In this document: piece after piece, positions 51,778-56,578 of the stretch | How the letters are laid out: each line of letters opens with the position of its first letter | Position numbering within the stretch: the first letter of the stretch is position 1 | DNA from: Actinomycetospora chibensis | GTDB taxonomy: Bacteria; Actinomycetota; Actinomycetes; Mycobacteriales; Pseudonocardiaceae | Length of the DNA: 64,000 nucleotides | Direction of reading: 5' to 3' | NCBI RefSeq assembly: GCF_028737215.1 | Contig: NZ_JAQZAM010000023.1 | Span: forward strand, 1 to 64,000 | Position numbers and translations under genes: made by a program | Notes under the pieces: model-generated | Told to the model about the DNA's origin: nothing | What the model saw: the letters and a program-made list of their open reading frames with translations, nothing else | Database searches by the model: none

Positions 51778-51781
<4 letters not shown>

Positions 51782-52383
51782 CGCGGCCCCAGCCTGCTCA
51801 GGGCGGCGCGCAGGACACCGGACGAGTCGGACGGACCGGACGGGCCGCCGAGCACCTCGTCGACGGCCTTCTCGGCGGGCTTGGCGGCGAAGCCGAGGCC
51901 GACCAGCGCCTCGACCACCTGGTCGCGCAGCGTCCCCGCGGCCACGGCCGAGACGGGCGTCCCGTCGTCGTCCGCGGCGCTCGGTGGGGCGACCTTGTCG
52001 CGCAGCTCGACGACCAGGCGCTCGGCGCCCTTGCGCCCGATGCCCGGCACGCTCATCAGCGTCGTGAGGTTGCCGTCGGCCAACGCGTGGCTCAGGGCCG
52101 CCGGGGCGAGCACCGCCAGCGTCGCCAGCGCGACGCGCGGCCCCACCCCGGACACCGTCTGGAGCAGCAGGAACATCTCGCGCTCGGAGGCGTCGGCGAA
52201 CCCGAAGAGCGTCAGCGAGTCCTCGCGGACCACCAGCGCCGTGTCGAGGCGGGCCTGCTGCCCGCGGCGCAGGCGGGCCAGCGTGTTCGGCGTCGCCTGC
52301 ACGGCCAGCCCCACACCCCCGACCTCGACCACGGCGTGGTCGAGCCCGACGCCCAGGACCTCCCCCCGCACCGACGAGATCAC
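51778..52383 (-). CDS. ruvA: Holliday junction DNA helicase subunit RuvA
   Basis: This 201-residue protein binds four-way junctions and recruits RuvB. The N-terminal OB-like domain ([20 protein letters not shown]) and helix-hairpin-helix motifs ([36 protein letters not shown]) are evident, with a C-terminal RuvB-binding domain. GTG 52383 has GGAGGG upstream. A LexA-type box and a -10 box lie 25-46 bases before the start. Confidence 0.96.
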
Positions 52384-52407: not shown

Positions 52408-52429
52408 GCGAACACGCGTTCGAAGGCTA
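52408..52429 (-). promoter_or_regulatory. LexA-type SOS box and -10 box of ruvAB
   Basis: GCGAACACGCGTTCGA (52408-52423) matches the actinobacterial SOS consensus TCGAAC-N4-GTTCGA with one mismatch. TAGCCT on the minus strand (52429-52424) directly abuts it, so a bound repressor would cover the transcription start. This fits SOS induction of ruvAB. Confidence 0.75.
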
Positions 52430-52506: not shown

Positions 52507-53331
52507 TCACTGCGCCAGGTGGTCCGCCAGCACCGGGGCGAGCACCGACGGGAGGACGAAGTGCTCCTGGCCGGGCATCGTGCGGTGCTCCGCGCCGGGC
52601 ACCGCGGCGGCCAGGGCGGCGACGGCCTCGGTCACCCAGGCCGGGCTCGCGCCGCCGTCGAGAGCGAGCAGGGGGGTGCGCAGGGCCGCGAGCCGGTCGC
52701 TCGGCAGGGCGTCGCGGACGACGAGGGCGACGTCGTGGGGCAGCGAGGGCGCGAGCGCGACGGTCCGGGCCCAGAAGGGTGTGGCCCGCAGGCGCTCGAC
52801 CGGTGCGGGTGCGGCCGCCGGGAAGCCGTCGAGGAACGCGGCCGCGGCGTCGTCGGGCCGGCCGTCGCGCAGGGCGGCCATCGTGGCGGCGGCCAGCTCG
52901 TGCCGTGAGGACGGGTCCTCGGTCGCGAGGCGCCACGGCGGCTCGTGGGCGACGACCCGCCCGGCCGGCACGCCGCACATCACGGCCTCGAGGACCAGCA
53001 CCGCCCCCGCGGAGTGCCCGTAGAGGGCGGGGTGGACGGGGTGGGCGGCATGCGCGACGACGGCGGCGAGGTCGGCGACCTCGGCCGCGACCAGCGCCTC
53101 GCCGGCGGCCCCGAGGGGGTCGACGTCGAGGGTGGGCGCGCCGCCCGAGTCGCCGCGTCCCCGGCGGTCCCAGGTGTGGACGGTGGCCCGGTCGGCGAGG
53201 GTCTCGGCGAGCAGGCGGACGCTCGCCCGATCCTGCAGGGCGCCGGTCGTCAGCACGAGCGGCGGGCCCTCGCCGACGGTCTCCACCGCGATGCGCGTGC
53301 CGTCGGCGGAGAGGACGTGCGCCAGGGTCAA
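52507..53331 (-). CDS. Alpha/beta hydrolase
   Basis: This 274-residue alpha/beta-fold hydrolase has the nucleophile elbow GHSAG ([11 protein letters not shown]) and a late His in GQEHFVLPS. The [13 protein letters not shown] segment is typical of the family. Substrate is unknown. A TTG at 53331 overlaps the ruvC stop codon (TTGA); no better start lies nearby, so translation is probably coupled to ruvC. It separates ruvC from ruvAB, which is unusual. Confidence 0.82.
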
Positions 53332-54067: not shown

Positions 54068-54535
54068 GTGAGCAGCCCGACCGAGGAGCCCCGCCCGCCC
54101 TTCCCGCCGTTCGACGAGGAGTCGGCGCGCGCGAAGGTGCTGGCCGCCGAGAACGGGTGGAACACCCGCGACCCGGAGAAGGTCGCGCTCGCGTACACGG
54201 TGGACACCGTGTGGCGGAACCGCGACGAGTGGGTCACGGGCCGCGACGAGGTCATCGGGTTCCTCACCCGCAAGTGGCAGCGCGAGCACGACTACGTGCT
54301 GCGCAAGGCGCTGTGGACCTACGGCGGGCACCGGATCGCGGTGCGCTTCCAGTACGAGTGCCGCGACGACGACGGGCAGTGGTGGCGCAGCTACGGCAAC
54401 GAGAACTGGGAGTTCGCCCCCAACGGCCTCATGGCCCGGCGTGAGGCGAGCATCAACGACCTGCGGATCACCGAGGACCAGCGCCGGATCCACGGGACGC
54501 GCGCCGACGGGGACACGAGCGAGATTCCGATCTAG
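54068..54535 (+). CDS. DUF1348 (SnoaL/NTF2-like) family protein
   Basis: This 155-residue protein matches the DUF1348 type of the NTF2-like fold. The segments [36 protein letters not shown] and [20 protein letters not shown] are typical. No role is established. GTG 54068 has GAGGAGG upstream. Its TAG and that of the convergent AlkB-like gene share the palindrome CTAG (54532-54535). The 172-base region before it holds nothing more I can assign. Confidence 0.85.
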
Positions 54536-55167
54536 GCGATCGAGGGCCGCGGCCCCGGGTCGTCGTGCCGGAAGGTGACGCTGACCCGCGGGCCGGCGCC
54601 GGGCCACTTCGGCACCGTGTGCTGCCAGTCGTGCTGGCAGCGCCCGCCCATGACGAGCAGGTCGCCGCCCGCGACGGTCAGCCTCGTCGAGGGCCCACCG
54701 CCCACCGGGCGCAGGCCGAACCGCCGTGGGGCCCCGAGCGAGACGATCGCGACGATCGGCGCCTCGTGGGTGTAGCGGACGCGGTCGCCGTGCCAGGCCA
54801 CCGAGTCGTCGCCGTGGCGGTAGTAGTCGGCCGAGACGCGGTCGAAGCGCACGCCGTACCGCGCCGTGAGCGCTCCGGCGACGGCCGGCGCGGGGTCGGG
54901 CGCCTCCGCGACGCGCCACCCGCAGGTCAGCCGCGGTTCCATCACGTTCCCAGATCCTCCCGTGGCTGGGTCGTACATCCGGCGGCGTCGCTGGTTCCAC
55001 GGCGCCTCGGCGACGATCGCGTCGAACCAGGCGTCGGCACCGGCGAGCCAGGCGGGGGCGAGATCGACCCACGACGTCTCGTCCAGGACGATGCGGCGCG
55101 GGACGACGGTCGGATCGGGGGCGGGCTCGCCCCCGCCGAACAGCGAGGGCGTCCACGCGGCGGTCAT
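54532..55167 (-). CDS. alkB: AlkB-like 2-oxoglutarate/Fe(II) dioxygenase
   Basis: This 211-residue oxygenase of the AlkB superfamily probably reverses N-alkyl damage in DNA. Iron ligands His126 and Asp128 are in WHGDR and His183 is in WQHTVPK. The 2-oxoglutarate-binding arginines are in GPRVSVTFRHD. The LTCGWRVAEAP and SADYYRHGDDSVAWHGD segments suit the DNA-repair AlkB branch. ATG 55167 is chosen; GTG 55185 would lie inside the LexA-type box. Divergent from acyP, and probably SOS-controlled. Confidence 0.88.
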   Translation of the reverse strand: MTAAWTPSLFGGGEPAPDPTVVPRRIVLDETSWVDLAPAWLAGADAWFDAIVAEAPWNQRRRRMYDPATGGSGNVMEPRLTCGWRVAEAPDPAPAVAGALTARYGVRFDRVSADYYRHGDDSVAWHGDRVRYTHEAPIVAIVSLGAPRRFGLRPVGGGPSTRLTVAGGDLLVMGGRCQHDWQHTVPKWPGAGPRVSVTFRHDDPGPRPSIA

Positions 55168-55177
55168 CGCCGACGAG

Positions 55178-55193
55178 TAGAACACATGTTCGA
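55178..55193. promoter_or_regulatory. LexA-type SOS box between alkB-like and acyP genes
   Basis: TAGAACACATGTTCGA matches the actinobacterial SOS consensus TCGAAC-N4-GTTCGA with one mismatch. It lies 11 bases before ATG 55167 on one side and 18 bases before ATG 55212 on the other, so it could repress both. No clear -10 box is seen for either gene. Confidence 0.72.
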
Positions 55194-55211
55194 GCGCAGG
55201 GGGAGGTCTCG

Positions 55212-55478
55212 ATGGCGAGCAAGCACGTCGTCGTCCACGGACAGGTACAGGGCGTCTTCTTCCGTCAGAGCGCGCAGGACACCGCGGGCGATCTCGGTGT
55301 CGCCGGGTGGGTGCGCAACCGCGACGACGGCTCGGTGGAGATGGTCGTCGAGGGTGAGGACGGCGCCGTCGACCGCATGATCGCCTGGGCGCACGAGGGC
55401 CCGTCGCAGGCGCAGGTGACCGGCGTCGACGTCACCGACACCGAGCCCCGGGGGCTGCGCTCCTTCGACCAGGCGTGA
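55212..55478 (+). CDS. acyP: Acylphosphatase
   Basis: This 88-residue enzyme hydrolyses acylphosphates. The catalytic residues are Arg18 in GVFFRQSAQ and Asn36 in GWVRNRDDG, and the C-terminal MVVEGE segment is normal. ATG 55212 has GGGGGAGGT upstream. Its TGA overlaps the GTG of the AlkZ-like glycosylase (GTGA), so it is coupled to a DNA repair gene. Its role in that setting is not known. Confidence 0.94.
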   Translation: MASKHVVVHGQVQGVFFRQSAQDTAGDLGVAGWVRNRDDGSVEMVVEGEDGAVDRMIAWAHEGPSQAQVTGVDVTDTEPRGLRSFDQA

Positions 55479-56578
55479 ACGTCACCGCGGGCCAGGTCCG
55501 CGCCTTCCGCCTGCGCCGCCAGCACGTCGCCCTGCGCGACGGCACCGACCCCACCGCGATCGCGCGGCGCCTCGTCGGCGTGCAGGCGCAGGTTCCGTCC
55601 GCGGCCGCGCAGGCCGTCGCCGTGCGCACGGCCGACGGCACCGCGGACGACGGCGCCGCCGACGCCGCCCTGGCCGCGGGCGCGCTGGTCCGGACCTGGT
55701 CGCTGCGCGGCACGCTGCACCTGCTGGCCGCCGACCAGGCGCCCGCGGTGCTCGCGCTCCTCGCCGCGGCCCGCACCTGGGACAGGGCCTCCTGGCAGCG
55801 CGAGTTCGCCACGGCCGCGCAGATGGCGGCCCTCGAGGCGGCCGTCGCCGAGGTGCTCGCCGACGCCGTCCTGACCCGCGAGGAACTCGTCGCCGCGCTC
55901 GTCACCCACAGCCGGGAGGAGGGCCTCGCCGGGGCGCTCGGCTCCGGCTGGGGCGCGGTGCTCAAGCCGCTGGCCTGGCAGGGGCTGCTCTGCCACGGCC
56001 CGCCCGCCGGGTCGCGCGTGACGTTCGCGCACCCGCGCACGCTGGTCCCGGACTGGCCCGGCCTCCCGGACCCGGACGAGGCCGCCCGCGAGGTCGTCCC
56101 CGCGTTCCTCGCCGCCCACGGGCCGGCCACCGCGACGGCCTTCGACGCCTGGCTCCTGCGTGGCGCCACACCGAAGAAGCGGCTGCGGACGTGGTTCGCC
56201 GACCTCGTCGCGGACGGCGCGCTCGCCGAGGTCACCGTCGAGGGCGAGACCCGCTACGCGCGCGCCGAGGACGTCGACGAGCTCGGGGCCGAGGCGCCCG
56301 GGCTGCGCCTCCTCGGCCCCTTCGACCCCTACGTCCTCGGCGCCGGCACCGGCGATCCCGACCTCGTCGCGACCGCGCACCGCGGCGAGGTCAGCCGCGC
56401 CGCCGGGTGGATCGCGCCGGTCGTGCTCGACGCGGGCCGGGTGGTGGGCACCTGGCGTACCGACGACGACCGGCTCGAGGTCACGCCCTTCGGTGGGCCG
56501 CTGCCCGACGGGGCGCTCGACGAGGAGCGCGCGGTCTGGAGCCGGATCCTCGGGCGCCCGCTCACGCTCCGGGGGTGA
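55475..56578 (+). CDS. AlkZ/YcaQ-like DNA glycosylase (HTH_42 winged-helix family)
   Basis: This 367-residue protein is of the winged-helix family that includes AlkZ and YcaQ, glycosylases which open crosslinks and remove bulky alkylated bases. The catalytic QxQ motif is present as VGVQAQ with Gln37 and Gln39, at the same numbering as in the studied Streptomyces AlkZ. The conserved VRTWSLRGTLHLL segment follows. Within the family many members are uncharacterised, so the exact lesion is unknown. It is coupled to acyP and preceded by a LexA-type box. Its end overlaps the convergent gene by 17 bases. Confidence 0.82.
   Translation: MNVTAGQVRAFRLRRQHVALRDGTDPTAIARRLVGVQAQVPSAAAQAVAVRTADGTADDGAADAALAAGALVRTWSLRGTLHLLAADQAPAVLALLAAARTWDRASWQREFATAAQMAALEAAVAEVLADAVLTREELVAALVTHSREEGLAGALGSGWGAVLKPLAWQGLLCHGPPAGSRVTFAHPRTLVPDWPGLPDPDEAAREVVPAFLAAHGPATATAFDAWLLRGATPKKRLRTWFADLVADGALAEVTVEGETRYARAEDVDELGAEAPGLRLLGPFDPYVLGAGTGDPDLVATAHRGEVSRAAGWIAPVVLDAGRVVGTWRTDDDRLEVTPFGGPLPDGALDEERAVWSRILGRPLTLRG

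What the first reader, a model, noticed from the sequence alone, without database searches (positions are those of the whole stretch)
54532..56578. SOS-controlled divergent repair locus: AlkB-like dioxygenase versus acylphosphatase plus AlkZ-like glycosylase
A near-consensus LexA box (55178-55193, one mismatch to TCGAAC-N4-GTTCGA) sits in the 44 bases between two divergent gene starts. One side encodes an AlkB-type direct-reversal enzyme. The other encodes acyP and, coupled to it, a glycosylase with the AlkZ QxQ catalytic motif. Direct reversal and crosslink or bulky-lesion glycosylase functions would thus share one SOS switch. The sequences and the box are seen directly; family roles are known; joint regulation is inferred.
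Basis: partly seen in the sequence, partly recalled or inferred. Interest (0 to 1): 0.78.

Follow-up and report, generated by a model that had tools for sequence, protein, structure and literature searches.

The report
DNA-damage switch shared by repair genes
In the bacterium Actinomycetospora, one DNA-damage control site sits between a gene for an enzyme that reverses DNA alkylation and a gene pair that includes an enzyme thought to cut out bulky or cross-linking DNA damage, an enzyme type usually tied to antibiotic self-protection.

Summary
The window is from Actinomycetospora (Pseudonocardiaceae). A LexA-type box (55178-55193, one mismatch) lies in the 44 bases between alkB (minus strand) and acyP-alkZ (plus strand). 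It sits in the same place in 15 of 15 Actinomycetospora loci examined; 13 of its 16 columns are invariant, against 1 of 13 and 0 of 20 beside it. Of 84 alkB loci from other genera of the family, 71 have a box with at most one mismatch at the alkB start; none does in three control windows. SOS control of alkB is therefore shared and ordinary; it is published for Streptomyces venezuelae. The new part is the other arm: acyP plus an AlkZ-like (AZL, QAQ motif) glycosylase lie across the box in 14 of 15 genus loci, while 54 of 54 AlkZ relatives elsewhere have no match better than 3 mismatches within 600 bases. I read this as an AZL glycosylase recruited to an ancestral alkB SOS switch, next to ruvCAB, whose ruvA has its own box. 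LexA repression of the acyP-alkZ arm is inferred from geometry and conservation; there are no expression, binding or enzyme data.

The parts
55178..55193 (.). LexA-type SOS box TAGAACACATGTTCGA, between the two divergent starts
   Evidence: conserved 15 of 15 genus loci, 13 of 16 columns invariant
54532..55167 (-). alkB, AlkB-type 2OG-Fe(II) dioxygenase, 211 residues
   Evidence: PF13532 E 5.7e-14; ALKBH3/ALKBH2 structures are the best PDB matches; HxD, distal H and R-x5-R letters present in 15 of 15 (letters recalled)
55212..55478 (+). acyP, acylphosphatase, 88 residues, first gene of the rightward unit
   Evidence: PF00708 E 5.3e-25; R and N active-site letters in 15 of 15 (letters recalled)
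55475..56578 (+). alkZ-like (AZL) DNA glycosylase, 367 residues, overlapping acyP by 4 bases
   Evidence: PF06224 E 1.1e-45; 5uuj AlkZ E 2.7e-83; QAQ in 14 of 14 genus copies
52408..52423 (.). second SOS box (GCGAACACGCGTTCGA, one mismatch) 24 bases before ruvA; neighbouring SOS unit, not part of the divergent promoter
   Evidence: a one-mismatch box precedes ruvA in 11 of 11 other genus loci that reach ruvA
51781..52383 (-). ruvA (neighbour)
   Evidence: PF01330, PF14520, PF07499
53328..53894 (-). ruvC (neighbour)
   Evidence: PF02075 E 1.5e-52

Best explanation
LexA bound to the one box represses two divergent units: alkB to the left, acyP-alkZ to the right. After DNA damage, RecA-driven LexA self-cleavage frees both. 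AlkB then reverses small alkyl lesions, and the AZL glycosylase excises bulky or cross-linking alkylpurines for base excision repair. Shown here: gene families, the box, its conservation, the gene order in the genus, and boxes before lexA and recA in the same genome. Inferred: LexA binding at this site, repression of both arms, and the substrates. acyP is treated as first gene of the rightward unit; nothing here shows a repair role for it. Evolution (inferred): alkB with its box is the older SOS unit, and acyP and alkZ came to lie on the free side of the box in the Actinomycetospora lineage.
For: Box in 15 of 15 genus loci, with flanks not conserved. acyP divergent from alkB across the box in 15 of 15, alkZ behind it in 14 of 15. 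In the window the spacer is 44 bases: 10 bases, box, 18 bases, so a promoter for either gene must overlap or abut the box unless it lies inside the opposite gene. acyP-alkZ are translationally overlapped by 4 bases in the window. alkB box shared by the family: 71 of 84 loci, controls 0 of 84 three times. Same motif before recA and lexA of this genome, and before genes with IMS, PHP/DNA_pol3_alpha, radical-SAM and DnaB domains. alkB reported as a LexA target in S. venezuelae (PMC9380542, passages).
Against: No expression or binding data. In 7 of 15 genus loci acyP starts 66-81 bases from the box start, leaving room for a separate promoter. The sigma-70-type scan found no promoter in the region (0). 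The four nearest alkB relatives outside the genus (L079-L082) have no box with at most 2 mismatches near alkB. One genus locus (G098) lacks alkZ. No AlkZ outside the genus has a box, so there is no independent recurrence.
Confidence: 0.66

Rival explanations
1. The box controls alkB only. acyP-alkZ is a neighbour pair with its own unregulated promoter, kept there by gene-order inertia.
For: alkB carries the box across the family without acyP or alkZ (78 of 84 loci with at most 2 mismatches; neither gene found beside it). AlkZ elsewhere never has a box in 54 of 54 loci. E. coli ycaQ was reported not induced by mechlorethamine (PMC7367128, passages). 7 of 15 loci have a longer box-to-acyP distance.
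Against: In 8 of 15 loci acyP starts only 29-45 bases from the box start, so an unregulated promoter would have to lie inside alkB or overlap the box. Arrangement kept across two clades whose AlkZ proteins are only about 55% identical.
Confidence: 0.27
2. The AlkZ-like protein is a self-resistance enzyme of a biosynthetic gene cluster that happens to lie near alkB.
For: AZL genes are reported as highly enriched in biosynthetic clusters in Streptomyces (PMC9040887, abstract and passages).
Against: Neighbours are ruvC, ruvA, ruvB, yebC, GNAT, DUF1348 and EEP-family genes, and the gene is in 14 of 15 genus loci in the same place. No cluster predictor was run on the rest of the window.
Confidence: 0.05
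3. The box is a chance match.
For: Weak matches are common in this window (77 with up to 3 mismatches).
Against: 15 of 15 conservation with unconserved flanks; control windows.
Confidence: 0.02

Closest known systems
LexA-controlled alkB of Streptomyces venezuelae (PMC9380542; passages read)
   Same: AlkB-type repair gene as a core LexA target; ruvC-ruvA also LexA targets there
   Different: No divergent acyP-alkZ is mentioned in the passages seen (no hit for glycosylase or acylphosphatase in that text); the box listed there for alkB (GGTTACGCTGGATC) is far from consensus
AlkZ of Streptomyces sahachiroi and the AZL subfamily (PMC9040887; passages and section 5; PDB 5uuj)
   Same: PF06224/HTH_42 fold family, (Q/H)-aliphatic-Q motif (here QAQ), full-length match
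   Different: AZL genes are described as enriched in biosynthetic clusters and variable in copy number; here the gene is genus-wide, beside ruvCAB, behind a LexA box
E. coli YcaQ / YQL subfamily (PMC7367128; passages)
   Same: Same superfamily; unhooks crosslinks
   Different: QxD motif subfamily; reported constitutive, not raised by mechlorethamine while lexA and uvrA were

Membership tests
LexA/SOS regulon, actinobacterial type | Near-consensus TCGAACN4GTTCGA box at the promoter | tested here: met
   (one mismatch); 15 of 15 genus loci
LexA/SOS regulon, actinobacterial type | Genome encodes LexA and RecA with the same box before them | tested here: met
   lexA over TIGR00498 cut-off, three one-mismatch boxes upstream; recA recognised by its P-loop text, one-mismatch box upstream
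LexA/SOS regulon, actinobacterial type | Box conserved at orthologous alkB genes | tested here: met
   71 of 84 loci outside the genus with at most 1 mismatch; 6 of 84 with 3 or more, among them the four nearest relatives
LexA/SOS regulon, actinobacterial type | LexA binds and damage induces both transcripts | not testable with these tools
   needs EMSA and RT-qPCR
AZL (AlkZ-like) glycosylases | PF06224 / HTH_42 protein | tested here: met
   E 1.1e-45, 157.1 bits against cut-off 25.9
AZL (AlkZ-like) glycosylases | (Q/H)-aliphatic-Q catalytic motif, not Q-aliphatic-D | tested here: met
   QAQ in 14 of 14 genus copies; motif definition from PMC9040887
AZL (AlkZ-like) glycosylases | Groups with AlkZ in a tree | tested here: inconclusive
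   tree of 67 relatives places it in a QxQ group, but S. sahachiroi AlkZ was not in the tree; pairwise match to AlkZ is strong
AZL (AlkZ-like) glycosylases | Location in a biosynthetic gene cluster (common, not required) | tested here: not met
   neighbours are ruvCAB, yebC and others; no cluster predictor run
AZL (AlkZ-like) glycosylases | Excises bulky or cross-linking alkylpurines | not testable with these tools
   needs glycosylase assay
AlkB dioxygenases | PF13532 with HxD...H iron site and 2OG-binding Arg | tested here: met
   WHGD, QHTVP and R-[VI]-SVTFR in 15 of 15 (residue roles recalled)
Acylphosphatases | PF00708 with catalytic Arg and Asn | tested here: met
   R of VQGVxxR and N of GWxxN in 15 of 15 (residue roles recalled)

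The most novel reading that the evidence does not exclude
An AlkZ-like glycosylase, of a type known from antibiotic self-resistance, has become a general LexA-induced repair enzyme: a genus-wide crosslink and bulky-adduct arm of the SOS response, gained by placing the gene on the free side of an ancestral alkB SOS box.
Probability: 0.48. Interest if true: 0.62.

Novelty: new variant of a known kind. Interest (0 to 1): 0.47.

Why it matters
Crosslink-unhooking glycosylases are described as constitutive (E. coli YcaQ) or as self-resistance genes of antibiotic makers (AlkZ). A damage-induced one would show how such a resistance-type enzyme enters the general DNA-damage response, and would join direct reversal and bulky-lesion excision under one switch. 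The short two-sided promoter makes the idea easy to test.

Tried and rejected
Considered and rejected. Chance box: control windows gave 0 of 84 with at most 1 mismatch, three times. A box as a general feature of AlkZ genes: 54 of 54 AlkZ loci outside the genus have nothing better than 3 mismatches in -600..+45, and of six PF06224 matches in the own genome (one partial) only the window copy has a box with at most 1 mismatch in its locus. acyP as generally SOS-linked: 28 of 28 acyP loci outside the genus have nothing better than 3 mismatches in -300..+45. Separate gains of alkZ in the two clades: the tree joins them at 92/70 (each clade 100/99 or better), so one origin is favoured, not proven (one broken copy, L062, was dropped as short, and duplicate loci were left out).

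Led nowhere or failed. Promoter and terminator scan: 0 and 0. By eye, the invariant clade-A mismatch makes TAGAAC on the acyP strand, and clade B has TAnAnT at the box edge on that strand; these could be -10 elements but I could not test it. In the family loci a TAnnnT-like stretch often follows the box shortly before the alkB ATG, which hints at leaderless alkB transcripts; untested. Own error: ruvC was given one base out of frame (no family found; its ruvC rows are not valid); repeat it in frame. The frame L004:619-1488 that I took by eye for ImuA', and the frames at L010 and L002, gave no Pfam match. Literature: LexA+AlkZ, YcaQ+SOS response, acylphosphatase+LexA, Actinomycetospora+DNA repair, listed no paper on an SOS-controlled AlkZ, as far as titles and the passages I opened show; the library is open-access only.

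Full report
Identity of the window. The nearest named relatives of the AlkB protein are nine Actinomycetospora records (L016-L024, 80-93% identity), so the window is from Actinomycetospora, Pseudonocardiaceae.

The observation. The proteins are an AlkB-type dioxygenase (PF13532), an acylphosphatase (PF00708) and an AlkZ-like glycosylase (PF06224). The glycosylase matches AlkZ of PDB entry 5uuj over residues 6-358 at E 2.7e-83, its Q-A-Q on the same letters of AlkZ. The AlkB protein matches ALKBH3 and ALKBH2 structures best.

The box is a working motif of this genome. The pattern TMGAACN4GTTCKA matches 10 places exactly and 55 with up to one mismatch, against 12 for the reversed control pattern; only part of the list was shown. 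Frames beside four of the exact sites carry an IMS (Y-family polymerase) domain, PHP plus DNA_pol3_alpha domains, a radical-SAM domain, and DnaB domains (L004, L003, L006, L008); three other frames tested gave no Pfam match. recA, recognised by its P-loop text, has a one-mismatch box upstream (L103). lexA, over the TIGR00498 cut-off, has three one-mismatch boxes upstream.

Conservation in the genus. Fifteen loci were compared: the window, nine named Actinomycetospora records and five unnamed same-genus genomes. 15 of 15 have alkB, the box and a divergent acyP; 14 of 15 also have alkZ behind acyP. G098 lacks alkZ; the next frame after acyP there looks CsbD-like by eye. Two clades appear. Clade A (10 loci, with the window) has the one-mismatch box, with TAGAAC on the acyP strand in 10 of 10. 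Clade B (5 loci) has a perfect box. Of the 16 box columns 13 are invariant, against 1 of 13 to the left and 0 of 20 to the right. The expected catalytic letters (recalled) are kept in AlkB and AcyP in 15 of 15, and QAQ in AlkZ in 14 of 14.

Conservation of the alkB box in the family. AlkB relatives are in 103 of 150 family genomes, 105 matches in all. I examined 90 of these: 6 are from this genus and 84 from others; 15 were not fetched. Of the 84, 28 have a perfect box, 43 one mismatch, 7 two and 6 three or more, in the window -200 to +45; one of the one-mismatch cases (L101) lies inside the gene and is probably chance. Three control windows in the same 84 loci gave 0 loci with 0 or 1 mismatch, and 4, 0 and 2 loci with 2 mismatches. 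The loci are related, so these are not 84 independent events. Against the reading: the four nearest outside relatives (L079-L082) have no box with at most 2 mismatches near alkB; L080 has one 721 bases upstream. Further out, 5 of the 18 loci outside the genus (L025-L029, actinobacterial MAGs, two of them nearly the same sequence) have a box with 0-2 mismatches before alkB, and 13 do not. Published work on S. venezuelae lists alkB as a core LexA target, with a listed box far from consensus (PMC9380542, passages). The alkB arm is thus ordinary for this family.

The acyP-alkZ arm. AlkZ relatives occur in 30 of 150 family genomes at E 1e-20 and in 38 of 394 class genomes at E 1e-40. Loci outside the genus were held for 54 matches (25 family, 29 class); 5 further matches (second matches, one in the own genome) and 8 had no locus and were not examined for a box there. 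0 of 54 have a box with fewer than 3 mismatches in -600 to +45, and 0 of 54 have acyP or alkB in the held flanks of about 1.5 kb. The own genome has six PF06224 matches, one partial; only the window copy has a box with at most 1 mismatch in its locus. acyP relatives are in 30 of 60 family genomes at E 1e-7. Of 28 loci outside the genus, 28 have nothing better than 3 mismatches near acyP; the three closest (G001, G047, G010; 51-58%) stand elsewhere, and 15 of the other 25 lie before smc by a crude text test. In the own genome the only other acyP match is a 41% hit inside a 767-residue open frame. The tree of 67 AlkZ proteins joins the two Actinomycetospora clades at 92/70 inside a wider QxQ group of actinomycetes. 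I conclude, as inference, that acyP and alkZ came to lie opposite an older alkB box in this genus.

Neighbourhood. alkB, DUF1348 and ruvC follow each other in 13 of 13 fetched genus loci that reach that far (L021 ends before), with extra DNA of 1.2-3 kb between alkB and DUF1348 in L016, L018, L023 and L024. A hydrolase gene between ruvC and ruvA is found in clade A loci only. yebC, a GNAT gene and an EEP-family gene follow alkZ in clade A; no match to them was found in the 2-3 kb held beyond alkZ in clade B. ruvA has its own one-mismatch box (window 52408-52423), present in 11 of 11 other genus loci that reach ruvA (L017-L020, L022-L024, L245-L248). So two SOS-boxed repair units lie within about 3 kb, which I read as a small repair neighbourhood.

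Mechanism. In the window the spacer holds 10 bases, the box, and 18 bases with a purine-rich stretch before acyP. A promoter for either side must overlap or abut the box unless it lies inside the opposite gene, so LexA would be expected to block both; this is inference. In 8 of 15 loci acyP starts 29-45 bases from the box start; in 7 of 15 it is 66-81 bases, where the argument is weaker. acyP and alkZ overlap by 4 bases in the window; one search lists the -4 start in 8 of 10 clade A loci, and the sequence at the acyP stop of the other two shows the same GTGA. In clade B the first candidate starts after acyP lie 4-22 bases downstream.

Known and new. AZL proteins are described as enriched in biosynthetic clusters and defined by (Q/H)-aliphatic-Q (PMC9040887; abstract, passages and section 5). 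E. coli ycaQ did not rise with mechlorethamine while lexA and uvrA did (PMC7367128, passages). My searches listed no report of an SOS-controlled AlkZ or acylphosphatase, in an open-access library only. This is a known regulon with a new type of member: a new variant of a known kind.

Limits. No expression, binding or enzyme data. Unknown: the substrate of this glycosylase, and any role of acyP. Promoter elements were judged by eye, and the automatic scan found none.

Noticed in passing
52408-52423 (window): One-mismatch SOS box 24 bases before ruvA, kept in 11 of 11 other genus loci that reach ruvA; in clade A a hydrolase gene (52507-53331) separates ruvC from ruvA, so ruvAB has its own SOS box.
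   Followed up: partly
L006 (G000:C11:94861-97876), 1-1527 minus: Radical-SAM protein beside a perfect SOS box; the stretch after its CxxxCxxC cysteines reads like an intein by eye (radical-SAM domain match only from residue 279).
   Followed up: no
L002 (G000:C2:164125-167140), 1167-1508 minus: Unknown 113-residue frame starting at a perfect SOS box, with a near-box 67 bases away; no Pfam match.
   Followed up: partly
L022 and L023, spacer between box and acyP: About 46 extra bases with an imperfect inverted repeat (GAGTGCTTTCCCGTG...CACGGG-like) between the box and acyP, seen by eye.
   Followed up: no
L079-L082 (genera g3 and g38): Closest alkB relatives outside Actinomycetospora (57-61% identity) lack an SOS box near alkB; L080 and L082 show a coding-like upstream with a shared sequence.
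   Followed up: partly
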